Shown here: positions 11,682 to 54,304 of the stretch, piece by piece
Layout of the letters: each line of letters starts with the position of its first letter
How positions within the stretch are numbered: position 1 is the first letter of the stretch
Source: Quillaja saponaria
Lineage: Eukaryota; Streptophyta; Magnoliopsida; Fabales; Quillajaceae
Direction of reading: 5' to 3'
DNA: 64,000 bases
Assembly: GCA_029379385.1 (NCBI GenBank)
Contig: CM055608.1
Coordinates: forward strand, 18,598,350 to 18,662,349
The notes under the pieces: generated by a model
Database searches by the model: none
The model's input: only the letters and a program-made list of their open reading frames with translations
Told to the model about the DNA's origin: nothing
Position numbers and translations under genes: made by a program

Positions 11682-11689
11682 TCACCTAT

Positions 11690-13316
11690 TCTCATAACAG
11701 GCACAGAAACAGTAGCTTCTGATAGATCATATAATGGAATAGTAACATCCTCATTTCGCTTTTCCTAATCTAAAGGTAAAGACTTTTTCAACTCAGAAAT
11801 ATCAAATTCCAAGAACTTGGTAGTTTGTGATTCCACTACTTTGGTTTCTTGTGCGGGGCAATAGAACCTGTATCCTTTAGAGTGATCTGGATAACCAATA
11901 AAGTAACAGCGAGTAGATCTGGATCGATTTTCTTCTCATTTGGGTTATAAATTCTCACTTCAGCTGGACACCCCCAAACAGGAAAATGGTTCAAGCTAGG
12001 CTTTCTCCTAGTCCATAACTAAAAAGGTGTTTTAGGCACCGTTTTACTGGGAACCTTATTAAGGATGTACAAGCCAGTTTTAATGGCTTCCCCTCAAAGA
12101 TATTTAGGCAAGTTTAACCTACTCATCATACTCTTCCTCATGTCTTTAAGGGTGCGATTATGCCTTTCGGCCACACCATTTTGTTCAGGGCTACCAGGCA
12201 TGGTATATTGGGCAACAATCCCACACTCTTGTAAGTACTTGGAAAATGGTCCTATATGTTGTCCATCAACTCCATGTTTTCCATAATACTCACCTCCACG
12301 GTTAGATCTCACAATCTTAATGACTTTCCCTAATTGTTTTTCAACTTCAGTTTTTCAAATATAAATTTATCAAGAGAATCAGATTTTTCTTTAATCAAGT
12401 ATAGAAAACCAAAATGGGAAAAGTCATCAATGAAGGTAATGAAATAACAATTTTTACATAAAATGTTAGAATAGGGTCTACTAATATCTGTGTGAATGAT
12501 CTCTAAGAGTTCTAAACTACGGGTTGACCCCTTTTTCTTGATCTTAGTCAGTTTACCTCTAATACAATCAACAAAAGTTTCTAAGTCATCAAAATCAAAT
12601 GATGGTAGGATACCATCCTTAATGAGTCTTTCAACTCTTTCCCTTGATATGTGACCCAGATGATTATGCCAAAGCATTGAGGATTTCTCTTTAATTAAAT
12701 ATCTTTTGAAAACAACTTTTTCAATATTTAAAGAGGAATTAATATTTAAGGGTGCTAAACTCATTATGTATAAAACATTGGACAAAATACACCCTCCAAG
12801 AATTTCAGAATTTAAAAGCAACTGAACTTTTAAATTACCAAAATTAAAGGAATAACCAATTTTGTCCAACAAGGAAACTGAAATCAAATTCCGCCTAAAA
12901 GATGGTACATAAAAAGTGTTTTCCAAAATAAGTTCAAAACCACTTTCTAAAATTAAGGAGACGATTCCTACAGACTCGACCTCAACTTCGACATCATTCC
13001 CGACTCTAAGCTTTGCCTCTAAATCACTTGGCTTCCTTTTGTGTTTGAACCCCTGCATGGTACAAGCAACGTGAACAGGTACACCACTGTCAAGCCACCA
13101 AGAATTTGATGGAACATTAACTAAATTGGATTCAAAACAAACGAAAGCTAGTGAGTTACCTTCTTGTTTATTTTTCTTTTCTAAACGGGATTTTAATTTG
13201 AAGCAGTCTGCTTTCACATGACCTCTCTTTTTGCAAAAGAAACGTGTTATATCCTTTTTAATGGCAGCCTTAGGACCACCTACAACAGGTTTCTGACCAG
13301 TACCATGCATTTTCAC
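11690..13316 (-). pseudogene. Copia zinc knuckle, protease, GAG-pre-integrase and integrase
   Basis: Frame 12330-13316 starts with a CCHC knuckle (FFCKKRGHVKADCFKLK). The retropepsin site is WWLDSGVPVHV, keeping Asp-Ser-Gly. The integrase zinc domain is LWHNHLGHISRERVERLI, then ETFVDCIRGK, where the first Cys of CxxC is Phe. The catalytic core begins IHTDISRP and FIDDFS, then breaks. It resumes in frame 12094-12312 with RSNRGGEYYG, where the second catalytic Asp (RSDRGGEY) is Asn, and continues to the Glu-bearing GSPEQNGVAERHNRTL. The integrase C-terminal part, with a stop, reaches about 11690. Loss of catalytic and zinc residues means an inactive enzyme. Confidence 0.88.
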
Positions 13317-14030
13317 ATCTTGAGTTTTGTTATGATGAGTAGATTTAGACTTACTCTGACTACCCTTGGTAGAACTAGGTTTGGAATGGGAAACAAAAAG
13401 TGCGGTTTCACTCTTTTCTTATTTAAGCTTATCCTTCTCAGCCACACACTTAGAGATAATATCATTAATGGTTCAGGATTCATTTTGGGTGTTATAGGCA
13501 GTTTTAATTTGGGAGAAATCAGGTGGTAAAGAATTGAGGAAATGGTAAGCCACAAAACTATCAGGGATTGGAATTTCTTTGTTTTTAAGCTTAGTTTGTA
13601 CGTGAACCATTTTGAGAATAAACTCTCGAACCCCAGTTCTATTTTCATATCTCATACCTGCTAGATCATTTATTAGCTTTCCAGTCTTAGCATTATCAAT
13701 ACCTTATACCTATCCCCCACAGTTTTCATGAAGTCTTTGTCATTTTGAGTTTCAGGCAACCCAATCAAAATGTGTTCAGAGATTGATCTCTTCATATAAA
13801 TCAAACTCAACCTATTTGATATCTCCTATTTGTCAAAAGCCTCTTTCTGAGCTATGGAGCTAGCATAAGAAAGATCAGTAGGTTTCTCACTATGTAGAGC
13901 TAAATCGATATCAATAATTCTCAGGCCAAATTCAACATATTGCTTTCATTTCTTAAAGTTGGAACCGTTCAACGATTCAATAGTAGCACTATTGTTGTTA
14001 ATAGCTAGGGAGACTGATTCAATAATAAAT
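13317..14030 (-). pseudogene. Copia gag (UBN2-type), broken
   Basis: Minus-strand pieces read IESLNGSNFKK followed by TGA where Trp is expected, then LRIIDIDLALHSEKPTDLSY, IGLPETQND, and frame 13473-13655 with VREFILKMVHVQTKLKNKEI and NSLPPDFSQIKTAYNTQNE. This is the core gag fold of plant copia elements. Several stops and shifts interrupt it. Confidence 0.8.
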
Positions 14031-14099
14031 AATGCAACATGTCAACAAATTGAGTAATTAAAAATCAAGAATAAAAAAATTATTCTCCATGAATCCAAA

Positions 14100-14400
14100 G
14101 TGCATCATTACAAACTTCCCTTTGGGCAGAAAATGTAACATGTTATTAGGATCTCATGATCAACCCATGAAACTTAAATTAGAGTATCCTAGCTTTCGAA
14201 AAGTCTATCCCCTTTGGGCAGATAAACCTTCTAGGCCAGCATACCCCAAACCATATATTTCATGTATTTTCCAAAATTAAAGTATATAATAACCCCATTT
14301 GGGCAAGAAACTATATACAATAATTTAAGAAACATCACATACTATAGCTTTCAAAAATCCCACAAATCTATATAGATAGACCACTTTGGTGGCAACCATC
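14100..14400 (-). repeat. Imperfect repeats in the copia leader
   Basis: CTTTGGGCAGA-like motifs occur at 14119, 14211 and 14296, with a weaker ACTTTGGTGGCA at 14382, a spacing of about 85-92 bp. They lie in the untranslated leader between primer site and gag. Confidence 0.55.
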
Positions 14401-15485
14401 TACATAAACCTATAAGATTATCTCAAGCCGGGAAAATATAATTACTCATTATTTATCCTTTCAAACCAAAATACATTTTAAAAGTATCTCATAGGATTAA
14501 AAACATGTTACAATTTTGAAAAATTGAATCGAAATAGAAGTATTCACTAACACATGTTATGAAAACATGAGAGTACAAAATTATTTAGCTCTAACTAGGG
14601 AGAGTACCTACTATTAACAGTTCAAGAACATATAAAATATGAAAATTAAACAGTTTTCAATAATTATTTATGTGCTACCATATTAGTTTGAAACATAACA
14701 AAACATCATTAACCAAACCAATATATCATGCACATAATATCCAAAATTTAACCATACCATAAAATTATAAAATTTAAAAAATTAATTTGGTAAAATTTTG
14801 GAGGGCAAAAGGATGGCAAAAGGTGGTGCGTGTACCACATGAGCCACCTGCCTCGCGTGGGATACACTCGCGCGGCTCTGTCTTCCTCCTCCAGCCTAGT
14901 CTTCTTGACTCAAACTGGAAGAAGCGGGTCTGTTACAACCCATTTCTAAAAACTATGTTTTCTAGAAGCTTTCGAATGCTTTTGCTTAAATTTCTTGTGT
15001 GGGGTTTGTTTTAAATTGCTTTTCTAACAATAACCCTATAATAATTTCATGTTTTATCAAGATTAATTGAAATTATAATGACATGAACCCTAACTCTATT
15101 TCATAAGGGTTTAATGCCAATTTCTCAAAATAATATGAATTATCATTGAATGATTCCTGATTATGTATAAAACATACCAGAATCTAAACCTATGATTTAA
15201 ATCGATTAAAACAACATGAAATCTTAGTTTTCAAATAAAAGCTTAATTTTGATTTTAAAATAACCCGAATCTTAAAATTTAGATTTCTCGACTTATAGTT
15301 GATGAAATCACTTAAATAATATATCAAATTAAAGATATAAACGAGACCTTTAAAAACCCTAACAAATTGGGCTCGATTTCATTCATATATGAGTTTGATT
15401 TTGAGTTTAAAGAACTGACTTATATGAACCCTATAATTTTATGTTAAATAAATAAACATAAAGGTTCTAAATTCATGTATATTAG

Positions 15486-15499
15486 GCTCTGATACCACA
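15486..15499 (-). other. Primer binding site of the copia element
   Basis: On the minus strand TGTGGTATCAGAGCC adjoins the LTR end; TGGTATCAGAGCC is complementary to the initiator tRNA-Met 3' end. Confidence 0.9.
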
Positions 15500-15982
15500 T
15501 GTTATAAATTTACAGGATCTCATGCATGAATTTAGAACACATTAATAATAAGGTTTGCTTACCTGATTGAGCCATAGCAGTGGATATCTAAAATCTCAGC
15601 CAAGCACGCCTCAGTAAATGATTGACACAGCCAGGTCTTCCTCTCCGTACTCTCTGTATTTCTTAGTAGCAGCTTTCAATGGGACAATATGCATATATAT
15701 AGAGAGGAGAGGGCACCTAGCTATTTCATGTCAGATAAAACTCTAAGAGTCCTCCTATTAAAGACTCCTAAAGTCACTTAGTCTACACTTACTGCCAATC
15801 CATATCTAATCAGATAATATATATAATCAGATAAGAAGTGTGCTTAAGCCCTATCTCAAATGATCACATAAACTATATAGGCTTTTACCAGCATGTCTTA
15901 AATGGACAAAACCTTAAGCTCGTTTTATTATTAAAAATGAAACCATACAATTAATAGTAGCCCACATATGGAATTTTAAACA
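15500..15982 (-). repeat. 5' LTR (right) of the copia element
   Basis: 483 bp, TGTTATAAAT...TTTTAAACA in plus-strand view, followed by the TSD ACTAC. A TATATATAGAGAGGAG-like segment is shared with the other LTR. Confidence 0.92.
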
Positions 15983-22521: not shown

Positions 22522-25500
22522 TAAATTAATCAATAATTTCTTAATTATAATTTAAAAATAAATAATCAAGAAAGATAAATTTCAAACTAATTCCATAAAT
22601 AAAAAAAATAACTTACCAGCAAGTACATAATTGGATCCATTGTCACTTATCAATTGGATGAGATTAGCCTTTCCAACATGATCTACAAATTCATCAAGCA
22701 ATTCATATGTCTTATCTTCGATTTTCATGAATGATGAAGCATCAATTGATTTCACAAACATTGTTCCATTAGGGCAATTAACCAAGAAATTCATCAAAAT
22801 TCTATTTCTTCTATTCGTTCGTCCATCTGACATAATGGAACAACCATATTTTGTCCAAGCATCTTTATAATTCTTCAACAAATTAGTAGTATACTCCTCC
22901 TCTTTTTTGAAAAAGGGAACTCTTAATTCATGATAACTAGGAGCCTTCATGTTTGGACCATACTGGCCAATTGCTTAAACCATTATTTTAAAAGAATCCA
23001 AGTGAGCAACATCGAAAGGAATCACCGCTTGATAGAAAAATCAAGCTATTTATTGACATGTCATTGCTCTTTTCTCTTTGTCAAAATCATTCATGTTTCC
23101 TTGCTTCATCTTTCCTTGTTTTGTTTTTGAAGTACTTTTTCTGGCTTCAAATATACAAAAGAATCTATAGGACTTGTTGTGTGCTTCTTCTTTGACATTA
23201 AATTTGACTGACCACTTCCACTTCTACCAATTTCATTCTTTTTACTGTATGCACCTCTCTTTCTAGCAACATGATCCTCCTCCTCTTCTTCATCATCAAT
23301 TTTAACAACATCATGATCTAAATCATCAAAGTCAGGCATTTTTGTCATAATTTTCTTTTGTACTTTTTTTCTCCGACATATAGTTATTAAGCTCCTCCCT
23401 TACATTGTCAGGACATTTCAGACATGTTTTTACATTCTTCGACGTACCCATTTGATGTTGTTTTGCTCTATGTATGCCACCCTTTCACACCTTTGAACAA
23501 AACATGCATGTAATAGTATTTATGTCCTTAGGATCTTGTAGATAGTTATACTTGTAACCTGGATCCTTTCTATTATTATTTGATCTCGTGCCATCCTCGG
23601 TCGCCATTTATGATGACTATTTAATAATTGAACATCCAAATAAATTAAAAAGAATAACTAAAATCAAATTAAAAGAGTATTGCATTGCAATACCAAGTAT
23701 AGTTAAATTAAAACACAAATTATATATTAAAAAAAAAAAAAAGAGAAGAAAAAACAGTCTAAGTCTCTAAGAGATATTCTATTTCCTAGTTGAATGTTGT
23801 TTAATTTATAATTTCTCAAATTAATACAAAAAAATAAAATATAAGAACAAAAAATAAAATAAAAATGATGCATATAAGGATTAAGGACAAAAGATAATTG
23901 ATGCTTACAAGGAAAAAAAAAAATTATGCAAAGTATAATGTACATGGAGAATGAGAAAAAATAGTAGTTTATAAAAACAAAAAATAATTAATGCTTATAG
24001 ATCAAACAATTTTTTTAATTATTTATTTTCCAGCCATGGATTGGAAAGTGTAAATTACAATAATAAAAAAAAAAAAAGAAAAAGAAAAATAATAGTCAAA
24101 ACGCATCGTATTCTCTCCTTCTTTCTTCTAGCGTTCCATGACTTATCGACTGTGAGCTTGAGCCACTGGTACTACTTGCCAAATTCCAGCGACTTTTGCA
24201 AGCAAAATTAGCTTCATTGTCGTCGACTCCATGTGGGGATCACAAGCCTTAACAAAAGGCAAAGGTTAGCTTTCAATTTAAGGCCAAAAAATAAAAAACT
24301 CAAAAGTTGTAAAGGTTACCATATTTGCAGATCTGCAGGCGCTCGCCTCTGCCACTTCTTGACTTGACTAAGGCGGCTCCTAAGGAGGAATAGGCACACG
24401 CCTCTTCGGACTCGCCTGAGGGGTCTTTAGGCAGTGTGTCTCCGCCTTGCCTCGCCTCGCTTGAGCACCTAGGTGGTCGCCTCTGGTGCCCGTGACATCA
24501 CTGCATTAACAGTCATAGAGTAGGAATGAGAGAGATACAGGAGAGAAATAAGAAATGAGAGAAATAGACTACATGCACATCCCTTCTCACAGGCTTTCTA
24601 GCTTATATAGTTTGACATACCAAATAACCAACTTCCCTTCCCAATTGCTATGGCATTGCATTAAGCCTTAATTCCTGGAGTGCCAACCCATTGGTCCTGA
24701 TATTCTTTTGGCAGCACCCTTTTCTGTTTTGGCTTCTTTTATCCTTACTTACCACATGGCCCTCATCATCCAGCTCAACCAAATTATCCATGTTAACTGC
24801 CACTATAACATCCCTTGTGCCAGCTTGTAAGTCAGCTTGATCCAAGTAGTATTGCAAGTCCCTGGCTATGATCACTTGATTAACATTGACTTGTATTTGA
24901 TTTTTATCATGTTTATTACATCGTTGAGCTTCGTAAATTTCATGTTATATAACATATACCAGTTGTTGGGTGTTCCTTACGGTGAACTCACACAAAGTGA
25001 TTTCCATCCATCTCGCACAATTATAAAACATATGCCTCCATGTCCTTGTATTGGATTTTGTTAATGAGAATTGAGCAATAGCATGCACTCTCAACACATA
25101 AGCTACACATCTAGCATTGAATGATTAATTTACCAATTGTCTTCCAAGATTTTGAGAACTATATATCAACCCTTTTTGTTTCAAACATTAGAGTATTTTC
25201 TTAAATAGTTATAGTTTTGATTCTCAAACATCTATTAGAAATATAGTATATACATATTTACATCTTTGCGCATGTGTGAGTAATTAAGTAGTAGAAACAC
25301 ATAAAATCATGTCTATGTTCTATATTAAAAAAATTGTGTTTGAGTAATTAGATACTAGAAAAATATTTGTATACAAAGCATTCAACCAATGGGTTAGGGT
25401 TAAGGTTTGTGCTCGATTCATTCAGTAAATGAGCCCAAGTACCGGCTTGAGTTTAGTCATTTACTAATAATTTTGAGCCTAAGCCAATCCTTGATTGAAT

Positions 25501-30192: not shown

Positions 30193-32207
30193 TGTCATAA
30201 CCTGATAATTGAACGTACATCTTATAATATTTGTATGTAAACTGTAGTGAATAGGTAAATAAAATGTTACACCAAGTAAAATTAAGATAAATGAACATTT
30301 GACTATATATGTACTGTTATAACCTGACATATTAATGAATTGTCTTAGAATTTTGTATAACTTTTGTATTTAAGTGAAACAATAATAAATAATTAAAACT
30401 AATGTGAATAAATATTCACGTGTATATATATATATATATATAATATTGTGAATCTAGAAATTTTGTACACCACAAATTAGAGCCTTGACTTTGACCCAAG
30501 TTACTTTCCATTTTCTTCCGTGAATGCCTCACTGACTTTCTTTTCTTTCAAGTGTAAAAGCTTTCCTTCTTGCCCTTTTTCACATCTATTGCAGTACCTT
30601 AGTATTCTTGTTTTCTTGCCCATTGCAGCTAAGGTAGAGATTACTTAGAATCCAAAATCGACACTTTTTCTTCTTGTTGGTTACTCTTGCTGCCATCTTT
30701 CTTAGCTTAATTGTGTAGGAAATCAAGTCAGCCCTTGGTAGCTAGCCTCCCTTGTTTTAAAGGCGGTAAATTATTCTTAGTTTTCTAGACATCGAGGCTT
30801 CTAATTAACCATGAAGGGGTATGGTTAAGGGTAAAACAAAACCTTGGAAGTGTGTTTGAAGTGTGGTAACCTGTTGTAGGAAATTAGCAGCCACAAACTT
30901 TGTTGGAGCAATGGTTTGGAAGGTCCAATTGTGGACTTTGTTAGAGGAGGCAGTCATATTTATTTTGTGTTTTGTTTGTGGTAATACAATGATATCTAAT
31001 CTTGGTTAGTAGAATAAGTGAGGAGTAGAAACAAGGCTTAGGAAATTATGCATAATAGTAGGAATAGAGGATTTGTCGGATAGTTACATAATTATTAGAA
31101 ACTAAATCTTGAAAGTTGACTTGGTGAATAGTGAAATTATATGATTCAAGGTTTGATTAAATTAAATGATTAGCTTAATTTAAATTTAATATGTGAATTG
31201 TGGACTAATTATATGAAAGTGTGGTATATGTATATAAATAGACATATATACACATTAATAAAAATGGCACAAAGAAATTTACTTTGAAGAAATGTATGAA
31301 AATTATCATATTTTCTAAATGATTAATAAAATGTTTAATAGGAAGTCTAAACTTTGTTGTGTTCATGGTGAAAGTGTATAATTTAAGTTTCTGGTTAACT
31401 TTAGAAAACTAATATAAATTGAATTCTAGAGTGGGAGTATAAATACTATGAAAAGTTGATAGTTAGTTTAATTGATGTATATATGGAATCCTTAAAGAAT
31501 GGGAAAGTAGTTTAAGAATTACTTCTATATGAACTAAATAAATTCTAGTTCATTAGTCTAAATTGGAATTCAATATATTGACATTGTAGTTAAAAGCGTT
31601 AAGTGAAATTGAATTAGGATCTTGAACTAAGAACAAGAAAAGTAAGAGTTAAAGGGTGATGCTAGTACCCTTTGGGTATGATTTTCCACTCATGGAGTCC
31701 GTAGGACTCACTCCTTTCTTGTGAATTTTTTTTAGTAATAGGAGTTTAGCATATGGCGTCATCGAGCTTGTGACCGGCCGACAAAGTACATCAAGGTATT
31801 TTCTAAGATCTTAGACTTGAAGTCAAGGATAAAAGTTTGCAGTCACGCCAGAATTGTGGGGTGTCTGATTTTGTATAATGTCATAGTCTAGTTATTTGTC
31901 TTGTTTATGATGTGGACATAGCAGAGCTCCTTATTGTCTTTGTGTTATTGTTGTGTAAAAACAAGAATATATGTGTTTGCATTTTGAGGCAAGTTCCATA
32001 TTGTAGGGAACCTCTACTGAAACTTTTAGCAAATTGTCATCTGTTTTAGTAAACAAACTTTTACAGTTAACTTTTATTTTTATCAAATTTCACTTTTAAT
32101 CGTTGGTATAGTTAAGAGTTCTATTTGTTTCTTTGTCTGAAATCAGGGTTACAGAGGTTTAGTTATCCATTCCTTTGGCTAGTCATGCCTCCGTGAGGGG
32201 TGTGACA
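30193..32207 (+). repeat. 5' LTR of element A
   Basis: 2015 bp with TG...CA ends. A TA microsatellite lies at about 30423-30442. The conserved central block of the family (GGGTGATGCTAGTACCC followed by TTTGGGTATGATTTTCCACT) is at about 31658-31700. Confidence 0.85.
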
Positions 32208-32210
32208 AGT

Positions 32211-32222
32211 TGGTATCAGAGC
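32211..32222 (+). other. Primer binding site of element A
   Basis: TGGTATCAGAGC three bases after the LTR end, complementary to the 3' end of initiator tRNA-Met. Confidence 0.9.
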
Positions 32223-32468
32223 TCAGGTTTAAAGGTCCGTGACTGCAAATATGGGACGATGTTACTTTGTTTGCATACGTTACCCGGGACATATGTAGAC
32301 TTAGTGATACATTCTAATTCATCATGAAACTTCAAGTCGTAATTCTCTAACATATTATCAATGGCCTAATACAATAAATATGAGTATAATTCGTCTATAT
32401 TTGTTTAGACATGATGATGCGTAGCAATCATGTTGTGAGTCATGTGAGATAATATTGTATTAGCTTAA

Positions 32469-32520
32469 ATCAGAGTGGCGTAGTGGAAGCATAGTGGGCC
32501 CATAACCCATAAGTTTCAGG
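32469..32520 (+). ncRNA. Initiator tRNA-Met 5'-half-like sequence in element A
   Basis: The 52 nt start ATCAGAGTGGCGTAGTGGAA and include the anticodon arm GTGGGCCCATAACCCAT with CAT anticodon. From my recollection of the plant initiator tRNA-Met sequence, about 44 of 52 positions match and all differences are C/T or A/G transitions. The 3' half (T arm, box B, acceptor) is absent, so it is a tRNA remnant and not a functional gene. It lies about 250 bp after the primer site, in sense orientation. Confidence 0.8.
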
Positions 32521-32886
32521 AAGTAAAAGTGTATAAGAACCTAATGTGAGAAGTAATCAGTGGTGAGTGTAAATAGAGAAGTTCGTAAACTTTGATCAAT
32601 CTTTCGGTGAAAACTAAGAAACAAGAAACCACGTAGGAAACCGGAGTTAAATGAAACGATTTATCTATATCATTTGTTATTGAAATTTGGGACGAATTTC
32701 TTTTAAGAGGGGGAGATTGTCATAACCCAATAATTGAACGTGCATCTTATAATATTTGTACGTAAACTGTAGTGAATAGGTGAATAAAATGTTACACAAA
32801 GTAAAATTAAGATAAATGAACATTTGATTATATATATATTGTTATAACCCGACACGTAATAAATTGTCTTAGAATTATGTATAACT

Positions 32887-35800
32887 TTTGTTATATCATA
32901 ATATTATCATAGAAAAAACACAAAATAAATGTGACTGTCTCCTCTAACAAAGTCCACAGGTAGACCTTCCAAATTGTTGCTCCAACAAAGTTCATGGCTA
33001 CCAATTTCCTGCAACCGGTTGCCACACTTCATACACACTTCCAAGGTTTTATTTCACCCTTAGCCATCCCTTTCATCGTTAATTAGAAGCCTTGATGTCC
33101 AAAAAACTTTGAACAATTTACTTCCTTCAAAATATGGAGGATGACTAGCAAGAGCTGACTTGATTTCCTACACAATTAAGCTAAGAGAGATAGCGGCAAG
33201 AGTAACCAAAAAGAGGAAAAAATGTTGATTTTGGATTCTAAGTTATCTCTACCTTGGCTATAATGGGCAAGAAAACAATAATACTATGGTATTGCAATAG
33301 GCATGAAAACAGGGCAAGGAGGAAAGCTTTTACACTTGAAAGAAAAGAAAGTCGGTGAGGCATTCAAGGAAGAAAATGGAAAGTAACTTGGGTTAAAGTC
33401 AAGGCTCTAATTTGTGGTGTACAAAATTTCTAGATTTATAATTATATATATATATATATAAATATATATCCACTTATTTAATTTAAATTTCTTGAATACA
33501 ATATGTCTTACTTCGAACACAATTTATTTAAGACAAATCCTAAAGGATTTAATTCAAAGTCAAGCAAATCAATGGTATATAATTATTCTTGCTTCATACA
33601 TGTATATATATCCATAAATATATATATACATGTGAATATTTATTCACATTAACTTTAATTATTTATTATTGTTTCACTTAGATACAAATATTATACATAA
33701 TTGTAAGACAATTTATTAACGTGTCGGATTATAATAGTATATTTATAATCAAATATTCATTTATCTTAATTTTACTTCATGTAACATTTTATTCACCTAT
33801 TCACTACAGTTTACATATAAATATTCTAAGACGTACGTTCAATTATTGGGTTATGACAATCCCCCTCCTTAAAAGAAATTCGTCCTGAATTTCAGTAACA
33901 AAGGATATAGATAAATAGTTTCATTATAACTTGGTTTTCACCGAAAGATTAATCGAAGTTTAAGAACTTGTCTATTTACACTCATCATTGATTACTTCTC
34001 ACATGTTAGGTTCTTATACACTTTTACTTCTTGAAACTTGTGGGTAATAGGCCCACTGCGTTACCGCCGCACCACTCTGATCGAAGCCAATACGATATTA
34101 TCTCACATGACTCACAACACGACTGCTACAGTCATTATGTCTAAACAAATACAAACAAATTCTACGCACATTTATTGTATAAGTCTACAATCACCTCGGG
34201 TAATCTATGCAAACAAAGCAACATTGTCTTGTATTTGTAGTCACGGACCTCTAAACCCAAGCTCTGATACGAACTTGTCACACCCCTCATGGAGGCATGA
34301 TTGGCCGGAGGAACGGATAACCAAACCTCCGTAACCCTGACTTCAGACAAAGAAACAAATAGGACTCTTGACTATACTAATGGTTAAAAGTGAAATTTGA
34401 TTAAACAGAAGTTAACTGTAAAAGTTTGTTTAATGACAATTTACTAAAAATTTCAGCAGAGGTTCCCTGTAATATGGAACATGCCTCAAAATGCAAACAC
34501 ATATATTCTAGTTTTTACACAACAACAACACAAAGACAACAAGGAGCTCCACTTCGTACACATTATAAACAAGGCAAATAACTAGACTATTACATTATAA
34601 AAAATCAAACACAACACAATTCTAGTATGACTACAAACTTTCATCATTAACTTCAAATCTGAGATCCTAGAAAATACCTTGATGTACTTTGTTGGCCAGT
34701 CATGATCTTGGCAAAGCCACATACTAAACTTCTGTTACAAAAAAAAATTCACAAGAAAGGAGCGAGTCCTACAAACTTCGTGAGTAGAAAATCATATCTA
34801 AAGGGTACTAGCATCACCCTTTAACTCTTACTTTTCTTGTTCTTAGTTCAAGATCCTAATTCAATTTCACTTAACTCTTTTAACTACAATGTCAATATAT
34901 TGAATTCCAATTTAGACTAATGAACTAGAATTTATTTAGTTCATATAGAAGTAATTCTTAAACTACTTTCCCATTCTTTAAGGATTCCATATATACATCA
35001 ATTAAACTAACTATCAACTTTTCATAGTATTTATACTCCCACTCTAGAATTCAATTTATATTAGTTATCTAAAGTTAACCGAAAAGTTAAATTATACACT
35101 TTCACTATGAACATAACAAAATTTAGACTTTCTATTAAACTTTTTATTAATCATTTAGAAAATATGATAATTTTCATACATTTCTTCAAAGTAAATTTCT
35201 TTGTGGTGTTTTTATTGATGTGTATATATGTCTATTTATATACCTATACCACACTTTCATATAATTAGTCCACAATTCAGTTAACTTAATGCAACATTGT
35301 ACATGCTTATTTTTTTTCATATAACACATCTATTCAAATACACATAATAATCTTGCCACCAAAGGATAAAAATTAACCATTCACCTTAAACTGATTTCAT
35401 TCGTCACTCACACTTGCAATCATGTTCGTCGTTGATTCAGCCACACTTTCCAAAGCTGCTATTACATTTTTCAAGCGTTACTTAGTTTGACAATTCTTAA
35501 GTTATAAGCTTTTAGTTACAAAAATCTAGAGTTACTCAGTTTCAAGTATTTATTTAAAGTTAACTCTTCTTTAGTTATTTTCACAATGATCTTTGAGATA
35601 TATTTGATTTTCGGTTATATACTTAACCAAATTTAACAAAACCAAGTTTAAACATTAACTTTGGGAAGTTATCTATCTTTCTTATTTAGAAACTTTTCCT
35701 AAAATCAGCCTTGAACTCAATCGATTCCTTACATGAACAAAAATAAGTCACTGCACAAATTCCTGATTCCCAACTCCTTATTACGATGCTTATAGAATTC

Positions 35801-37607: not shown

Positions 37608-40600
37608 TTAACCTACACCACATGTTAGTAAGTGGACTTTAGATTTAATTAGTTGTATTATTTTATTCCCTTATTTTGTTTTACTCCATTTCCCTTTTAC
37701 TTGCCAACTGACTTATTCTTGATGGGTTTCGGCTTGCAATCCATTTTCCCTTGCTTCTCTTTGTTTCCTCTTTGCTTTCTTGAACCTTCTTTGATTCTCT
37801 ACAATCAAAGGATATTTCACCTATTTTGTTTTTGTTTTAGTTGGTGAAGCCTTCAATACTTTAGCTCCAGCTGAGAAGAGTAGTTTAAAGGCTGGTTGGA
37901 TAGCCTTATGTTGGCTATAGGTGAGTCCCTGTTTTTGACTGAAAATTTCTTAGGCTAGTTAAGTAAGTTAGCTTGAGTTTTTGCTTAATAAAGTAGAAAT
38001 TCTTAGTGTGTGTGCATAATAAGTGTAGAGGTTGAAGGGAATTCTTTTAGTTCTATACCATTGAGGAAGATCTTGAAAGTCAAACTTGTATCTTTTTGTT
38101 CTATTAAAGGTTTTAAAGAGCTGGGAATTTATGACCTTGGTCAACAAAGCCTTACAAACTTGTTTATGATAAATAGGTTGAGGTTTCATGGTTGCTTAGA
38201 ATTTTAAATTGGCTTTACAGTTGAACCTAGACATTAAGTGCATTAATATAATAATCAAAATCTTCATTGTTTTGTCTTCATGTCTACAAATACTACTTAT
38301 GAAAGATGTAGAACATGGTCCCAATTTGTGGATAGCAAGATCAAGGCTCTTAAATAGCCTGGTTTTTCTGCTTTATATAAATTTTGTTATTTTCTTAAAA
38401 GATACTTAGGAAGTTAGGCTCTTTTTGTTTTTATTTCTTTATATAGCTTGTTGGAGGGAGTTTAGGTGTGTTATAGTTGAACAAGGCAGCAAGCTACTAT
38501 TTTTCCCTTCATACTATCATTTTTTTCAAACTAATAGAAGAGGTGCACAACCACCTTCTTTTCTTGATAGTTCCATGTCCTATATTTGCTTAAGATGGTG
38601 AATTGTCTTGAATTAAGATTTTCCTACTTGGTATGTGATTAAGAATTGGAAATTACATGTTAATAAGGGCAACTAGAAATTAATAGTAATAGCTAAATGG
38701 TTAGTATCATGAAATTTACAACTTGTAGGTGGTAAAAATAGTATGAATAAGGAGGAGGTCTTAGAAATTGGAATATACATATGAATGTTAGGATTGTGTA
38801 AGTTATATTTTGATGGAAGTGGATAGTTTAAGTTTTGGTTTAACTTTAGATAATTGGTTTAGCTTGAATTCAATATTTTGGAATGTGAGTAATATGAATT
38901 GAGAAAATTATGTTGGTTTCTTGGAGTTGGTATGTATATATATATATACATACTCAAGTAATAAAATAAGATGCACTTAAGAAGTTTGATAAAATGCTTG
39001 AAAGAAACTAGTTGTAATGTAAGGGTTAAAACTTAGTATATTCAAGTCTTTGTGGTTAAGGATTAATTGAATTTGAATAAAAAGCCTAAGAACAAGAGTA
39101 AAGAATGGTTGGTTGATGTGGAGAGTTGAGAATTTGATGAAAGTGGGTAGTGAGTATGAGCAAATGATATTTAGTGGTGGGGTGAAGTGTTGAAAGTGAG
39201 AGTTAAGAGGTTTTTGAAGGGATGTTGGGCTAGATTTCATGGGTTAGAAAGTTCTTGTGTTTCGAGTACTTACAGAGTTGAATTAAATTAATAGTTAAAA
39301 AAAGAAAATGTAGCTTAGGGTCTTGAGATAATGTCTGCAAAATTTCGTAACATAGTTTTGAGTATATTTGTTGGTAGAGTTGTTGGACTACAGCTAAGTC
39401 TATGTAAGATTATTAGTGAGCTTCAGTAAGTTTGGGAGACTTTGTCATAGGTTGTAGTTTGAATTAGCCTAAAACCTCTAATTATAAGTTGTTCCTAACA
39501 TACTAAAGAGTAAATCTGGAGTGGTGCAAGTCTTAATTCTATGTTGTGTGTATTTTGGAGGTATTAGAATTCTTGGCTGGAATTTTCAGGTCCTGACTAT
39601 ACTTGTTTTGAAGTAATTAAGATTGAGGGGTCTTAAAGGATGAATTGGGAGTAGAGTGATGAAGATAAAATTTTCCTTACATCTCTAAATACTAGACTAG
39701 AAATTTTTGTAAATTAACTCTCAAGTATGAGAATTCAATAAGCAATGGAATCAGGGGTTGGCAACTAGGAATTTGTGCAGTGCCCTGTTTTTGTTAATGT
39801 GAGGAATCAAGTCAGTTCAAGGCTAATTTTAGGAAAAGTTTCTGAATAAGAAAGATAGATAACTTTCTAAAGTTAATGTTTAACTTGGTTTTGTTAAATT
39901 AGGTCAAGGATATAAGCATAAATCAAATATATCTTCAAGATCGTTATGAAAATAACTAAAGAAAAGTTAATTTTAAATAAATACTTGAAATTGAGTAACT
40001 CTAGAGTTTCTTAACTAAAAGGTTATAACATAAGAATTGTCAAACTAAATAACACATGAAAAATGTAATTACAACTTCAGAAAGTATGGTTGAATTAATG
40101 ATGTACACGATCGCAAGTAAGAGTGACGAATGAAACCTGTTAAAAGTGAGTGGTTAATTGAACAGCCTATTAGGATGCTAGATTAATATGTTTATTTATT
40201 GCATATACTTGAATAAATGTGTTATTATAAAGTATAAGTATGTATAATGCTTAATTTGAGTTATTTGAATGATGTTTGGCATGTGAAATTGGTTGTGGTT
40301 GATAAAGGCCAACGAAGTGTTTTTCCTTTCGAAATGATTTTTATTTTTGAATTAAAATCTTGGTGCACCTAGGATGTTTTAAGATTTTCTTATTCTGATA
40401 AAAGTTTTTAAAGAATTGAGTGGTTAGCCCTGGTGGGTGGGTTTGAAGAAGGGATTCAGTGATTCTATTTCCAATTCTGTTTAGTGCGTGGGAGCAAAAT
40501 TGCCTTATGGTAGGTGGTGTGCGGGGCTGAGTTACTCCATTGGCCCTTTGCTTGCTTTGTATATTTTGATTGCCTTGATTATTTTGAGTGGATTATACAA

Positions 40601-41272
40601 TGTACTAATTGAACTGTGCTTGCTAAGTTTTATATATCCGTATTTGTATATGTGTAATCTTAGTAGTTTTAGAATATATGATATGTGGATATTAATTGAT
40701 TATATATTTTATAAGTATGTTGGGTGATACTAGTACCTTTTGGGTACGATTTTCCACTCATGGAATCCGTAAGATTCATCCTTCTCATGTGGTTATTTTA
40801 TTTTTAGTAACATGATCTCGAGGACGGCTATTACCAATTATGGAAGGCTATTTTATTTTTTGGAATCTTAATCTTGAAGTCAAAGGTTAAAAGTTTGCAA
40901 TCACACTAGAGTTGTGTGCTGTCAAATTTTGTGTTACGTAATAGTCTAGTTATTTGTTAATTGTGATGTGACTGGAGCGAAGCTCCTCTGTGTAATTCTG
41001 TGGTTATTGTGATTTGGTTGTATATGAGCAAGTGTACTTATTTGTATTTTGAGGCATGTTCCATATTGCAGGGAACCTCCACAAATTTTTTTTAGTAAAT
41101 TGTCATTTATTTCAATTAACAAGCTTTTGTTTTTATAAAATTTACTATGTTTTTTTTTCTTTTTTTTTTTTTAGTCAAGAGTCGTGTTTGTTTCTTGGTT
41201 CTAAAGTTAGGGCAACGGAGGTTTAGTTATCCATCTCTCCGGTCAGTCATGCTTTTATTTGGGGGTGTGACA
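37302..41272 (+). repeat. LTR 'C', 4.0 kb
   Basis: TGTTATAACCCGATAGC...GGGGTGTGACA. No primer site follows, so it is a solo LTR or the end of a recombined element. Microsatellites are at 37419-37440 (AC) and about 37569-37605 (TA). The central block is at about 40726-40765. Confidence 0.8.
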
Positions 41273-44078: not shown

Positions 44079-47000
44079 AGTTCTGTCATGACCCAAATCT
44101 ACAATCATGACCGACGTGAGATCCAAGATTGTTATAACCCGATAGTTTAACGTACATTTTAGGATATTCGTATGTAACTAGTTATGATCAAGTGAATTTT
44201 ACGTAAAATAGAAATAAATAAATAATTAATATTTGTATATTTATAATTGGGAAATTATATTTTCACCATATCAGGGGTTGAACAACTTGAAATTTACCTA
44301 TATAATTTTTCTTATATAATTTTTATTGTTGTGTGTAACATATGTAAATAAAAGAAAAGTAAACAAGGAAATAAATGGATTATAGGAATATATGTAAATA
44401 TATATGTATACAAATAGTTTTGGGAATAAATTATTACCACAAAGTGTCAAGGTTAAAGGGCAACCATGAATTTATATTAAATTATTGTTTGCCATCATAA
44501 TTCTTCTCCACTTTAGCCACCGACCTTATCTCTTGTCCATAAATATGTCCTTGCCGTGTATAGCTTGAAAGAGCCTTAGTCCCCTATTCTTATACTCGAC
44601 AAATTAGCATACAAAACTCTTGGGTTGTATAGCCGCTTAATTCTTCCAAAGTAAGTGAATTATTTTTTCCTTTCACTAGCCGTTAGCTTATTCTTCTTAA
44701 GCTTAGAGAACTTGACTTGGTGGCAACCATGGGAGTGTTTTAAGCATTTTGTTTTCTGGTAAGCTCTTGCTGTCCATGAAGTTAGCCTTTTCTTGGTTTG
44801 TTTTGTTTTGGTTTTCTTTGTGTAAACTAAGTAGAAGGTGGTTGATGGTAGGATATTGTTTTGGAAAGGCAGCTTATGTTCAGTGTTGCTGCAGCCCAGA
44901 ACAATAATGCCTTCCTTTCTTCTCCATAAAACGGTAACAACTCCCTTCAAAGATCAATAATCAAGTGTTTGTGTGTGTGTGCTGCTGTAGGCTAAGGTTA
45001 TAGCCGTTAGTGTGTTGTGCTCTCCTTCACGTGAGCTCCTAGTTATGGGGTTGGGTGATGTGTGTGAGTGAAGCAAGTGAGGGTATAGGAAATCAAACTT
45101 TTGGGTTGTTGTTGTGTTCTAAGTTGTGAGGTTTAGCAGCTGTGTAAGGGCAGTGGGGCGGAATCAACCATTTTGGCTTTAGTTTTTAAACTTTTCTTGA
45201 CTTTATTTTAGGCTAGCGTGTGCTTAAGTTAAGTTGGGGCAGCAAATATGCTGTCATGATTGTTATGTGTTTTAAAGGGATTAAACTACTCCTAACTCAA
45301 GAATTAAAAGGTTGTCTTACGAGTGAATCTTGTTGTTAAGGTGATATTATAACAAGAGGAATAGGTGCAGAAATTTTAGAACCTTAAAACTTTAGTATAG
45401 TATGTTACTCATGATAATTTATAAGTTGTCATTTCTTAATTTAATGGAATTGTTGGGAATAAAGTGAAAATAGTACTAGTTAGGAATCATGTGAAAATAG
45501 TACTAGTTAGGAATCATGAAATGTAACTAGGTAAAGTTTGAAGTAAAGAATTAAGACTTTTAAATAATTGGAAGTAATCAATTTTATTTTAAAATGTATT
45601 AATGAGGATAATAAATATGTGTTCAAAATAAATTATTTCTTAAATGGCATGTTAAATATATAAAGGATTAACAAATCAAATAATTAAGCTTGAAGTTAAT
45701 ATTGGGAATTAAGGAGGAAGAGTTAAAATTTAAAAGTGATGAAATGAGAGTTAAGAGGTCTTGAAGGGGTGTAGGGCTAGATTTTGTGGGTTGTAAAGAT
45801 CTTGTATTTTGGGTGCTTTCAGAGCTGAATTAAATTAAGAGTTTAAAAAAAGAAGTTTATCTTATGGTTTTAAGCTATTCTCTGCAAAATTTCGTAAACC
45901 TGGTTTTAAGTATATTTGTCAGTAGAGATACTGGACTGCAGCTAGGTCTATGTAGGATTTTTAGTGAGCTTTAGTCGGTTCGGGCAATTTTGTCATAGGT
46001 TTTAGTTTGAATTAGCCTAGGACCTCTAAATAAAAGTTTTTCCTAACATACTATAGAGTAAATCTGGAGAGGTGCATGTCTTAATTCTATGTTTTGTGTA
46101 TTTTGGAGGTATTAGAAGTAATGTCTGTGATTTTTGGGTCCTTACTGTACCTGTTTTGAAGTAATTAAGATTGAGGCTTCTTAAAGGATGAATTAGGAGA
46201 AGATTTCTGAAAACTAATGTTCCTAACATCTTGAAATACTATACTGGAAAGTTTCGTAATTTAACTCCCAATTATGTGAATTCTATAAGCATCGGAATCA
46301 GGGGTTGGCAACCAGAAATTTGTGCAGTGTCATGTTTTGTTCATGTGAGGAATCAAGTGAGTTTAAGACTGATTTTAGGAAAAGTGCCTAAATAAGAAAG
46401 ATAGATAATTTCTAACGTTAATGTTTAAACTAGGTTTTGTTAAATTTGGTTAAGTATATAAAAAGAAATCAAATATATCTCCAAGATCATTTTGAAAATA
46501 ACTGAAGAAGAGTTAACTTTAAATAAATACTTGAAACTGAGTAACTCTAGACTTTCGTAACTAAAAGGTTATAACTTAAGAATTGTCCAATAATGAAACA
46601 CTTGGAAAATGCAATTGCAACTTTGGAAAGTGTGGTTGAATCAATGACGCGCATGACCCCAAGTTTGAATGACCAATAAAATCGGTTAAAGGTGAGTGGT
46701 TAATTGTTATCCTTTGGTGGCTAGATTATTATGTGTATTTTCATATGTATTTGAATAGATGCGTTATATGAAAAAATAAGCATGTGCAGTGTTTTAATGA
46801 GTTATCTGAATTATGTTTGATGATTGAAAGTGTTTGTGGTTGATAAGTAAATTTTTCTCCGAAATAATTTTTATTTCTAAAATTGAAGTCTAAGCACACC
46901 TAGGATATTTTGATTTAATATTCTGATATGAGATACTCTGATTCTGACAATTGTTTTAAAAGAATTGAGTACTCAGCCCCGGTGGGATGGATTGTGTACA

Positions 47001-50000
47001 GAGAGTTAATCTGTTGTGTGGGCACGTAAATGCCCAGTGGGGGGAGATACTATTGTACGGGACTGAGTTACTCTGTTGGCTCTTTGTTTGCTTTGTATGC
47101 TTTGATTTCCTTGATTGTTTTAAGTGGATTATACAGTGTACTAATTGAATTATGCTTGCTAAGTTTTATATTTTTCATATTTGTATGTGTAATATTAATA
47201 ATTTTGGATATATGACATGTTGATATTAATTGATTATATATTCTATAGGTGTGTTGGGTGATGCTAGTACCTTTTGGGTATGATTTTTTACTCACGGAGT
47301 CTATAGGACTCATCCTCTTTAATAGTTATTTTTTAGTAACATGATCTTGAGGATTGTTATTACTAATAATAGACTTTACCAAGTGTTTGGCGGCAAGATA
47401 ATTATTCGGAATCTCAATCTTGAAGTTAAAGGGTGAAAGTTTATAGTCACACTAAAGCTGCGGGGTGTTTGGTCTTATGTGGGGTAATAGTCTAGTAAAT
47501 TGTTATTATGGTAAGAAACGGAGCAGAGCTTCTAGATTCTGTTGTCTTCGTTATTGTGTAAAAACAACAATATGTATTGTTTATGTTTTGGGCATGTTTC
47601 ACATTACGTGAAACCTTTGCTAAATTTTTTTGTAAATATTATGTATTCAATAACAAGTCTATGTGTTTATTTTAATTAAGTAAAGATTTTCTTTGTTTTA
47701 AATATAATTGTTTCAAGAGTCATAAGTGTTTAGTAGTGGTAAAGTCAGGGTTACGAAGGTTTGGTTATCCATTCCTCCGACTAGTCATGCCTTCGTTTGG
47801 GGGTGTGACAAAGGCAGGCCAAGCTCACCATGGATCAAGCTAGCCTCAAATTATGCCCTTAAGATCCTCCCACATAACTGGATAGCTAACATGATATTAT
47901 TGAATCTCAAAAGATTAACAATCTTAAGTTGCATTGTAATACTTAGTATTACATTGTTACCACATTGACCAAGTAATAAAAGCTTTCAATTTTTAATAAC
48001 GTCAATCCAACTGTACAATCTAGATATACACAGGTAACTGACACTTTAACAGCAACTCACCAAAACCACAAATACTAAATTAGATAGATTCATTCAACAA
48101 CCACACTTTTATTCCTATAGAAAACATAAAGAAACGGGCAACCTCTAAACCAATGGAAGCATTTACCAATCAAACTCATTATCCTTCTTGCAAGTATAGG
48201 ACCTAAAGTACTTTATCTCAAATTTTACCAAAGTAAAGAATCAATCTTGAAATATTATACGATCGGAATACAAAACTAATACTCCTACAAGGTAAGACAA
48301 CCATAAAAGGATTATCCTACACAAGGTCCCACAACTACCAGAGCCAACCATGTAATAGTAATTTGGCACCGTACTAGTCTTACAAAATAAATTTCCATTT
48401 GAAAAAAAATATCGTTTTTCATTTTCTTACTCGCATCTCAAAGCATTGTGTAAATTTTTATAAGAAATCATCAAACAATAATCCTATTATATTTTTAGAA
48501 AACACTTTCATAGTTTCATAATAGCTACATTTAGTCATGCATAACAAATGTCTATCGGAATATCCAATATCAACTATTCATCTAACAAAAACTGAATTAT
48601 TCCAAGTAAATATGAGTTAATATATAACTTACTAATATACAAGTCAAAAATTCATAATTAGTAAACAACATTTGAAACACAGATTTAAAAAAAAAGAAAA
48701 AAAGAAATGAAAAGAAGCTAAGGCATGAACTTTCCATTGTACAAACAATTATGCAAAAACACAATATAGTACAACAACAACGAAAATAGTTTCAAGCAAA
48801 AGAAAGAACTTATTAAGGTTCACAATTTAACAATGTGCTAATATATATATATATACATATATATATAAATATATTTTATTATACATTAAGTTCAAACAAA
48901 TATATATCTAAAACATTTATTTAGAAAACATTTATAAAATATTACTTTTGGAAGAATCCAAGACAGAATATCAAACGAACCAGTGGGCACAAAACCCAAA
49001 GGGCAGCACTAGCCCTACTGGCTAGGCATCTAAATCCATATCAATCTTATCATATCTAAACAACTCAGATCCAAGTGCTTGGCCAAGCACGGGGCTAGCA
49101 TCACCCCTACTAGTTTGGGTCGAACCAAGGTGCACCACGGCTAACAACACCACTGTTAGCTATGGATATTCTAACAAGGTTTCTTCCAAAAACAAATTCT
49201 ATGAAAACAAATTTTATCCTTCCATCATTTCACAAAAAACAAAATCCAATCATTCTCAAATCAATATTTTTCCGCTACTCGTGGGTTAACACCTTCAAAT
49301 ATAAACACCTATTAAAAAATAATAACTTAACAATGATTTTCTCACAAAAAAGAAGACATGTAGCCTGTACCTTCACAACAAATCTTCTTTTTCAATAAAA
49401 TGTCAAAGCCCACACTACTAGTAGGCGAAAAATCCAAAAATAGTTACATGTCTAAAAGACAATACAAATTCAAAAAATAATTACATTTGTAAAAGACAAT
49501 ATCAAAATGAAATTCATATCACTCTATGTACTCAAATCATTTAATAAACCAAACTATTTGTACCAAGTGCGTGTACACAATTCATTTACCAACAATTTTT
49601 TCTCCACAAATCTTCTCATATAAAATCCTTATCAACAAATCATTTCAAATGAATTTTCTCAAAACATATAATCTTGTATTGAATTCTCAATTGTTGAATC
49701 ATGATTATTTTTATAAAGAAAATGTATGTTCCCAATAAAAGCCTTTGATGTCACTCATGCAAATCCAAAATCAATAGATAACCAATAATCATTTTCATAT
49801 CTTCATAAAAAAAAATAAAAAAAATCGTTCCAAAACAAAATCATGTATGAGTTTCTAAAATAGTGCCAGATGTTGCAGTTACCACTCACCTAGACATTTA
49901 GAATCAAACTGGTGTCAATCTAATTTCATCCGAGACACATTCAAATGATGGAGCCAATTTTGATATCTGTAAAGATTCAATCTATAAAAGGAGTACTCAA

Positions 50001-52713: not shown

Positions 52714-54304
52714 ATGGCTGCAAATCAAGAATCTAAGCACTTGAGGGATTATGCAGTCCTTCTTGTGCAAGACCTCCATTCGAATATCCTAAGGCCGCCT
52801 ATCTAAGCCAACAATTTTGAACTCAAGGCTGGCCAAATCCATATGATTCAACAAATGAATCAATTTGCTAGATTATCAAATGATGATCCAAACTCCTACC
52901 TACTAAGCTTTCTAGAGATTTGAGACACTTTCAAGATTAACAGAGTTTCAAATGATGCACTATGGTTGCGACTCTTTCCTTCGAGATAAGGTAAAGAGTT
53001 GGCTACTAGCACTCCTATCTAACTCAATTACAATGTGGGAAGGCTTGGCCCGAAAATTCTTAACTAAGTTCTTCCCATCGGCCAAGAAGGCAAAATTGCA
53101 GAATGATATCACTTCATTCATGCAATTAGAGTTAGAGTCCTTATAGGATGCTTGGGAAAGATTCAAGGAGTTGCTTAGAAGATGTCCCCATCATGGTATA
53201 CCAACATGGCTACAAGCCCATATGTTCTATAATTGGTTGGTACACCAAACAACGACCAAAATTGATAGGGCAGCCGGGGGAGAATTCATAAAGAAGTCCA
53301 TTGATGAATCTTTCAAATTATTGGAGGAGATGGCCTCTAACAAATATCAATGGCCTTCTAAAAGGTTGGCAACTCGAAGAGTAGCTAGAATTCATGAGTT
53401 GGATGTCATTAATGCATTAACTACACAAGTGGCTGTCCTATCTAAGAAGATCGACATTCTTGCAATGCAACCAAACAAAAGCCAAGTCATGGCTTGTGAG
53501 ATTTATGGGTTAGCCATGCAAGCAACTTGTGCCCAAATAATCTTGAATCTTGGGCAATTACAATAGGTAACAAAACAACAACCCTTACTCCAACAACTAT
53601 AATCCGGGGTGGAGAAACCACCCAAATTTTTCTTGGAGCAATCAAGGGCAATCTTATGAAGCAAAACCCACTTATCCACTGGGTTTTCAAGCACAACAAA
53701 GAGTGGCTGCCCTTGAAAAGAAGCCAAACATTAAAGACATGTTCATGCAATACATGTCTACCATGGATTCCATTATACAAAGTTAAGTGGCATCATTAAA
53801 GACCCTTGAAACTCAAAATAGGCCAGTTGGCGAATGCTTTCACAAGTCATCCTCAAGGTGTTGTACCTAGTGATACTGAGTCAAACCCAAGAGGGAGAGG
53901 TCTAAACTTGGAGCATTGCAAGGCTATCACTTTAAGAAGTGGTAAAGAGCTGGAAAGTACCTCATAAGCAAGCTAAAAATCCTTCCAACCAAGTTGAGGA
54001 GGAAATTGTGAATGAAAAGAAAGAGGACTAAACACCAAAAGAGAAGACTCATTCATATCCACCTTTACCTTTTCCTCAACGCTTCCAAAAGCCAAAACTT
54101 GACATATTGTTCAAGAAATTTCTGGACATATTCAAGAAGCTTCACATCAACATTCTATTTATTGAAGCTCTTGAACAAATGCCTACTTATGTCAAGTTCA
54201 CGAAGGACATCCTGTCTAAGAAGCGAAGGATAGAGGATAATGAGATGGTTGCCTTGACCGAAGAGTATAATGCCATTTTCAAAAGAAACTACCACCAAAG
54301 CTTA
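52714..54304 (+). pseudogene. Gag of element F
   Basis: Starts MAANQESKHLRDYAV at 52714, then IQQMNQFARLSNDDPNSYLL and DALWLRLFPS, a frameshift, then SLRDKVKSWLLALLSNSITM and WEGLARKFLTKFFPSAKKAK. Frame 53171-53566 gives CPHHGIPTWLQAHMFYN, IDRAAGGEFIKKSIDESFKL and LLEEMASNKYQWPSKR. This is the capsid-type gag of plant Athila/Tat gypsy elements. A decayed zinc knuckle (ACEIYG...ATCAQ) is near 53490. The C-terminal part with PPLPFPQRFQKPK continues to 54304, where LTR G is inserted. Several stops and shifts. Confidence 0.85.

What the first reader, a model, noticed from the sequence alone, without database searches (positions are those of the whole stretch)
32469..32520. Half an initiator tRNA-Met carried inside an LTR element primed by that same tRNA
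The short internal region of element A holds 52 nt that align with the 5' half of plant initiator tRNA-Met, including the anticodon arm with CAT. Differences are all transitions, as expected for decay of methylated DNA. Its primer site (32211) is complementary to the 3' end of the same tRNA. The piece is in sense orientation about 250 bp downstream of the primer site, so it is not simple read-through from the primer. I infer capture by template switching onto the primer tRNA, later inherited by the family. Possible roles (packaging, tRNA mimicry, annealing) are speculation. The Cassandra elements with 5S rRNA are a known parallel for captured pol III RNA.
Basis: partly seen in the sequence, partly recalled or inferred. 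Interest (0 to 1): 0.75.

Follow-up and report, generated by a model that had tools for sequence, protein, structure and literature searches.

The report
Host start-tRNA captured inside a retrotransposon
A plant family of copy-and-paste jumping genes carries most of the host start-tRNA, the same kind of tRNA that starts its own DNA copying, and has spread that captured piece to dozens of places in the genome, apparently as a passenger.

Summary
Window 32469-32521 matches host tRNA-iMet nucleotides 1-53 at 45/53, all eight differences transitions; ten window shuffles reach 30 against 74. It is the 5' three-quarters, not half. The recalled tRNA equals host genes (three at 72/72, one at 71/72). 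Element B in the window has it too (41/53).

Of 40 element loci found genome-wide with the 3' flank alone, 31 carry the long piece, eight carry nucleotides 1-29 only, and one has no recognisable leader. It sits in the leader of a Ty3/Gypsy family with long LTRs; relatives with pol remnants have it too. The 250-bp spacing in A is a later deletion between two ATCAG motifs.

Best explanation: reverse transcriptase switched onto mature tRNA-iMet, probably the primer, during minus-strand synthesis, and the family inherited the result. Support: start at nucleotide 1, sense orientation, short junction homology. No function is shown: no covariation, and a hint of anticodon-arm constraint did not reach significance in a second set. 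No intact leader without tRNA was found, so the event is inferred.

The parts
30193..32207 (+). 5' LTR of element A (TGTCA...TGACA)
   Evidence: self-BLAST; ends read
32211..32222 (+). primer binding site, exact complement of tRNA-iMet 3' end
32224..32230 (+). CAGGTTT, extends PBS complementarity to tRNA position 58 after one extra T
   Evidence: alignment
32208..32717 (+). internal region of element A, no stop-to-stop frame of 110 codons or more
32469..32521 (+). tRNA-iMet nt 1-53, sense, 45/53
32469..32473 (+). ATCAG, site of a microhomology deletion of about 220 nt relative to the leader of other family copies
32518..32521 (+). AGGA, as in tRNA; the element sequence before the same 3' flank in the short-form subfamily ends AGGA in 3 of 8 copies and in variants of it in 5
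32522..32700 (+). 3' flank of the segment, shared across the family
32705..32717 (+). polypurine tract region next to 3' LTR
32718..32891 (+). 3' LTR of A, truncated; 92% identical to its 5' LTR over 174 nt
34276..35279 (-). 5' LTR of element B, truncated
34261..34272 (-). PBS of B, one mismatch
34029..34081 (-). tRNA-iMet nt 1-53 in element B, 41/53
32893..33858 (-). 3' LTR of B, truncated, head-to-head with 3' LTR of A

Best explanation
A Ty3/Gypsy LTR retrotransposon of this plant, primed by tRNA-iMet, copied part of a mature host tRNA-iMet into its leader. While copying genomic RNA towards its 5' end, reverse transcriptase reached a stretch like ...CTAGGA, moved onto the matching ...CCAGGA of a tRNA-iMet in the particle, copied it to nucleotide 1, ran off, and resumed on element RNA. 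The resulting leader (primer site, tRNA 1-53, then coding region or PPT) was inherited by pol-bearing elements and their short derivatives and spread across the genome. Shown: identity, 5' boundary, sense orientation, family-wide inheritance, short junction homology, and later deletions. Inferred: the switch itself, that the donor was the primer, and that the piece is a passenger without a function. The order of the 1-53 and 1-29 forms is open.
For: Start at mature nt 1 in nearly all copies printed, while the four host tRNA genes have unrelated leaders. The majority base of 32 copies equals tRNA at 50 of 53 sites. The 1-29 forms end in AGGA before the same 3' flank in 3 of 8 copies (L102, L103, L109) and in variants in the other five, at the place where tRNA has CCAGGA. 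The first 22 nt of the 3' flank match tRNA 54-75 in register at 11/22; at least that many occur in 0.4-0.7% of background windows, as expected if homology guided the switch. PBS of the same tRNA. pol remnants (Integrase_H2C2 in L056, SH3_Tf2-1 in L058) in relatives that carry the piece. Precedent: HIV-1 variants with 63-65 nt of tRNA, as described in PMC12220202 (passages).
Against: No relative with an intact leader and no tRNA sequence was found, so the original insertion site was not compared. The junction homology is short, only 3 of 8 short-form copies keep AGGA exactly, and the family majority at that place is AAGA. The 11/22 match was noticed after the fact and could instead be an altered remnant of a complete captured tRNA. 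The tree of 1-53 and 1-29 forms is unresolved. Sequence cannot tell the primer from another tRNA-iMet molecule.
Confidence: 0.66

Rival explanations
1. The piece was inserted as DNA or as a non-LTR (LINE-type) retropseudogene of a tRNA or tRNA fragment into an element already in the genome, which then amplified.
For: LINE-1 chimeras with half-length tRNAs are known in mammals (PMC13174262, passages). A direct repeat of 8 nt (A) or 9 nt (B) flanks the segment.
Against: That repeat length occurs at 8% (8 nt) and 3% (9 nt) of random window positions, and at 6% and 2% of positions within element A, and the left copy lies in the leader of the short-leader group, which most copies do not have next to the segment. 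No A-tail and no tRNA-gene flank at the nt-1 junction.
Confidence: 0.17
2. Stepwise capture: a 5' fragment of 1-29 nt entered first, and later switching between that stretch and whole tRNA-iMet extended it to 1-53 in one branch, replacing about 130-200 nt of element sequence.
For: Eight loci carry nt 1-29 only, with the same kind of 5' junction and the same 3' flank. The 29-nt stretch would offer homology for the return jump.
Against: nt 1-29 and 30-53 are equally diverged from tRNA (0.170 and 0.167 per site in 53 copies), so no younger age for 30-53 shows. The reverse order, replacement of 30-53 by other sequence, fits as well.
Confidence: 0.3
3. The piece is kept for a function, as a primer-tRNA mimic near the PBS comparable to the HIV-1 tRNA-like element, or as an RNA dimer contact.
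For: It holds the anticodon arm with CAT and lies near the PBS. In the first 33 copies the anticodon arm had fewer changes than context-matched sites (39 against 77 expected, p 0.010; ratio 0.43, p 0.004); all 59 copies together 0.60, p 0.015. HIV-1 parallel: PMC11181671 (passages).
Against: In the 26 newly found copies the ratio was 0.74, p 0.22. The signal rests on CCH-context sites; CWH and A/T sites show no difference. Both sets were found with queries that contain the arm, which favours copies that keep it. No covariation: 437 of 500 shuffles reach the paired fraction. Neither window copy folds better than shuffles. A and B are less alike in the segment (77%) than in the flanks (82% and 90%).
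Confidence: 0.1
4. Chance or convergent similarity.
For: None.
Against: Score 74 and 58 against a shuffle maximum of 30; 39 of 40 loci found with the 3' flank alone carry tRNA sequence.
Confidence: 0.001

Closest known systems
[quoted passage not shown]
   Same: Partial tRNA sequence acquired inside a retroelement genome; similar length (63-65 nt against 53).
   Different: Experimental, other tRNAs (Asp, Glu), in the nef region in place of an introduced hairpin, later removed; here natural, the primer tRNA species, in the leader, and inherited by dozens of copies.
Helenus (PMC10886601: abstract, methods, results part 1, discussion)
   Same: Non-autonomous LTR elements carrying tRNA-like sequence.
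   Different: Helenus has it in the LTRs, as a presumed Pol III promoter with boxes A and B, in elements of 311-1263 bp, thought to come from SINE insertion; here it is internal, without a recognisable B box, the LTR of A alone is 2 kb, and the tRNA is the primer species.
Cassandra TRIM (5S rRNA in LTR; as described in PMC10886601)
   Same: A captured small RNA gene product fixed in a plant LTR element family.
   Different: 5S rRNA, in the LTR, transcribed by Pol III.
HIV-1 tRNA-like element (PMC11181671, passages)
   Same: Primer-tRNA anticodon-like sequence near the PBS.
   Different: A structural mimic with reported binding to LysRS; here sequence descent without shown function.
Ty3 bipartite PBS (PMC5371799, PMC11381356, passages)
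   Same: Ty3/Gypsy element with extra sequence relating to tRNA-iMet beyond the PBS.
   Different: Ty3's extra part is complementary to the tRNA; this piece is sense. No antisense iMet match outside the PBS of A or B scored above 16.

Membership tests
Helenus | tRNA-derived sequence lies in the LTR | tested here: not met
   segment lies between PBS and PPT in A and B and between LTR end and PPT motif in the fetched loci where both were found
Helenus | TRIM size, at most about 1.3 kb | tested here: not met
   LTR of A alone 2015 bp
Helenus | boxes A and B conserved | tested here: not met
   A-box pattern matched in A, not in B; in the 199 nt after the segment of A only matches with 3 mismatches to a B box
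Cassandra | 5S rRNA sequence in LTR | tested here: not met
   Rfam gathering scan of the window: only snoR71
Retrozyme | hammerhead ribozyme in LTR | tested here: not met
   no hammerhead at gathering score in the window
Ty3/Gypsy LTR retrotransposon | LTRs with TG..CA, PBS, PPT | tested here: met
Ty3/Gypsy LTR retrotransposon | Gypsy-type pol in pol-bearing relatives | tested here: met
   SH3_Tf2-1 in L058 (E 3e-20, above cut-off) and Integrase_H2C2 in L056 (E 7e-4, below Pfam's cut-off); reverse transcriptase itself not recovered from the broken pieces sent
Ty3/Gypsy LTR retrotransposon | chromodomain or named lineage (chromovirus) | not tested
   leader and PPT style suggest it only from recall
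HITME-type tRNA acquisition | sense tRNA sequence joined to retroelement sequence with junction homology | tested here: inconclusive
   nt-1 start clear; 3' junction homology short and exact in 3 of 8 short-form copies
HITME-type tRNA acquisition | arises during reverse transcription | not testable with these tools
   needs an experiment
HIV-1-like primer mimic | conserved structure | tested here: not met
   no covariation in the two stems
HIV-1-like primer mimic | binding to a tRNA-handling protein | not testable with these tools
   needs an experiment

The most novel reading that the evidence does not exclude
The element and the host tRNA are repeated recombination partners: the inherited tRNA stretch gives reverse transcriptase a homologous landing place on the primer, so the leader is rewritten from host tRNA more than once (forms 1-29 and 1-53 with one shared 5' junction), which could also help hold the primer or mimic it at the primer site.
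Probability: 0.15. Interest if true: 0.8.

Novelty: new variant of a known kind. Interest (0 to 1): 0.55.

Why it matters
Acquisition of tRNA sequence by a retroelement had been described in laboratory retrovirus work. Here a natural family carries the sequence of its own primer species as a heritable leader module in at least 74 loci, so the rate and rules of switching onto tRNA could be read from genomes. It also warns that tRNA-fragment reads and short tRNA annotations in such genomes can come from transposons.

Tried and rejected
Chance similarity: rejected. Other tRNAs as source: elongator Met and plastid fMet score far lower; no full plant tRNA set was at hand. Target-duplication signal around the segment: not significant. 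Duplication of PBS-downstream sequence at the segment: 52 of 300 shuffles as high. Antisense iMet pairing outside the PBS: best score 16. tRNA-like folding: none. Pairing retained in the D and anticodon stems of A and B (8 of 9 each) is what random C/G transitions give. Selection on the anticodon arm: seen in the first set, not significant in the second, so not claimed. Whether A and B are separate insertions or an inverted duplicate could not be settled from 174 nt of LTR; the genome copies make this unimportant. Viral contigs: one pattern scan, no match. Leaders with the S sequence but no tRNA: that search did not complete. The whole-tRNA query against the genome did not complete, nor the leader-only query.

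Full report
What is there. Element A (5' LTR 30193-32207, internal 32208-32717, truncated 3' LTR 32718-32891) and element B on the minus strand (5' LTR 35279-34276, internal 34275-33859, 3' LTR 33858-32893, both LTRs truncated) are related LTR elements meeting head to head through their 3' LTRs. Both have a primer site for tRNA-iMet, exact in A, one mismatch in B. Both carry tRNA-iMet nt 1-53 in sense: A 45/53 (8 transitions), B 41/53 (10 transitions, 2 transversions). Four changes are shared, four are only in A and eight only in B. A Copia element at about 8845-15979 with an exact iMet primer site (15497-15486) shows no tRNA match above chance level other than the primer site.

Is it initiator tRNA? 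The sequence I compared with was recalled. ARAGORN folds it as tRNA-Met(cat), and the host genome contains it: three loci at 72/72 and one at 71/72, each with its own unrelated flanks. Ten shuffles of the window gave at most 30 against 74 and 58.

Family-wide inheritance. The genome (352 Mb, 213 contigs; a plant, the closest named Copia protein being Quillaja saponaria at 79%; the species itself is only inferred) answered three searches. One search, with A's segment and flanks: 40 matches (60 candidates, 40 scored), of which 4 are tRNA genes and 36 are elements including A and B. One search, with segment and flanks of L058: 40 matches (100 candidates, 40 scored), 14 already seen and 26 new. 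One search, with the 3' flank alone and no tRNA segment in the query: 40 matches (184 candidates, 40 scored), 27 already held and 13 new. Of these 40 flank-found loci, 31 carry the long form (some with small indels, one only to nt 43, one interrupted by an insert of about 550 nt), 8 carry nt 1-29 only, and 1 (L108) has no recognisable leader. In all 75 loci were found, two pairs of them near-identical (L022/L023, L080/L081); 74 carry tRNA sequence. The first two searches are biased towards carriers because the segment was in the query. Counts are lower bounds because only the best candidates are scored.

Anatomy across the family. Most copies have ...GGTGTTTAATT|ATCAGAGTGG... or a variant of it. 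A PBS with at most two mismatches was found within the fetched 700 bp upstream in 15 of 38 loci examined (four of the 38 are tRNA genes): 332-535 bp upstream in 12, and 245-256 bp in three of the short-leader group. Six of the 36 copies (A, B, L009, L015, L034, L041) have the shorter leader...TTGGCTTCG|ATCAGAGTGG, which is the common leader minus about 220 nt, joined at ATCAG present at both ends. So A's 250-bp spacing is secondary. Two of the six (L034, L041) leave the tRNA match after about nt 35. Where an LTR start was found downstream, it lies about 250-300 bp after the segment in the short elements and 3.4-3.6 kb after it in L057 and L058. L058 and L056 hold pieces matching SH3_Tf2-1 (E 3e-20) and Integrase_H2C2 (E 7e-4, below Pfam's cut-off) in that stretch; the other pieces from it gave no convincing match. 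So the piece belongs to the leader of a Ty3/Gypsy family and its short derivatives.

The short form. L102-L107, L109 and L110 share the 5' junction and the first 29 nt, then run into 131-197 nt of other sequence before the same 3' flank. That sequence ends CTAGGA in L102 and L109 and CCAGGA in L103; the other five have variants (for example CTATGA, CTTGGA, CTAGGT). tRNA has CCAGGA there, and the long-form majority is CCAAGA. Shared AGGA is what a switch from element RNA to tRNA would leave, but the evidence is short. The next 22 nt also match tRNA 54-75 in register at 11 of 22 (0.4-0.7% of background windows); this is a single register but noticed after the fact, and a degraded remnant of a whole tRNA is an alternative. 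Which form came first is open: the flank tree mixes them and nt 1-29 and 30-53 are equally diverged.

Decay and selection. A and B are less alike in the segment (77%) than in the flanks (82% and 90%). In the first 33 copies the anticodon arm changed about half as often as context-matched sites (39 against 77 expected, permutation p 0.010; ratio 0.43, p 0.004), the effect resting on CCH-context sites. In 26 new copies the ratio was 0.74 (p 0.22); all 59 together 0.60 (p 0.015). Both sets were found with queries that include the arm, so I treat this as unproven. The segment as a whole changes at about the rate of its flank (0.80, 1.24 and 0.93 of expectation in first, new and all). The sets leave out the four tRNA genes, L034, L041 and L023; the 32-copy counts also leave out L015, which has an indel. 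No covariation in the D and anticodon stems (32 sequences), no Rfam match, no folding signal.

Mechanism. Reverse transcriptase copies genomic RNA from 3' to 5'. A jump onto tRNA at about nt 48-53 followed by copying to nt 1 gives exactly a sense piece beginning at nt 1. The piece stops at position 54, four short of position 58, the methylated base at which copying of primer tRNA usually stops (recalled), and the PBS match covers 58-76, so piece and PBS together represent nearly the whole primer; I take this as suggestive only. Precedent: HIV-1 variants with 63-65 nt of tRNA (PMC12220202, passages; the original, Konstantinova 2006, is not held). That the donor was the primer is likely because it is in the particle, but most plant LTR elements use this tRNA (recalled), so agreement of donor and primer species proves little.

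Known or new. Ten paper searches (some searches listed only part of their hits, and I saw titles and abstract openings) listed no report of primer-tRNA sequence inherited in the leader of an LTR family; the library holds open-licence papers only. Helenus (PMC10886601: abstract, methods, results part 1, discussion read) is the nearest named family and fails on location, size and B box. I file this as a new variant of a known kind: retroelement capture of tRNA, here natural, heritable and of the primer species. In mending, confidence in the switch went from 0.68 to 0.66 and the insertion rival from 0.15 to 0.17, because AGGA is exact in only 3 of 8 short-form copies.

Noticed in passing
window 32891-32893: Elements A and B meet head to head through truncated 3' LTRs (LTR position about 174 of A against about 803 of B); cause unknown.
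   Followed up: partly
window 8845-15979 (-): Copia element with LTRs of about 480 bp (89%), iMet PBS, RVT_2, gag_pre-integrs and Pol_BBD pieces; no tRNA segment.
   Followed up: partly
window 53093-53199 (-): Plant snoRNA snoR71, above Rfam gathering score.
   Followed up: no
window 22585-22974 (-): Open frame with DUF659 (E 4e-34), a domain of hAT-type transposases (recalled).
   Followed up: no
window 39185-41272 and 45734-47810: Repeats ending like the LTRs of A but without an adjacent PBS, possibly solo LTRs of sister families.
   Followed up: partly
L034, L041: Short-leader copies that leave the tRNA match after about nt 35 and run into unrelated sequence.
   Followed up: partly
L111 (G000:C8:14303420-14304450): tRNA segment interrupted after about nt 38 by an insert of about 550 bp.
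   Followed up: no
L056:176-820: Open frame matching Peptidase_A3 of pararetroviruses (E 4e-15), upstream of the element.
   Followed up: no
L022 and L023 (contigs C87, C76): Identical segment and flanks as far as printed (25 nt before, 100 nt from its start) on two small contigs, possibly one locus assembled twice.
   Followed up: no
32522-32543 and homologues: First 22 nt of the 3' flank match tRNA 54-75 in register at 11/22 in the family majority (10/22 in A); homology at the switch or a remnant, not settled.
   Followed up: partly
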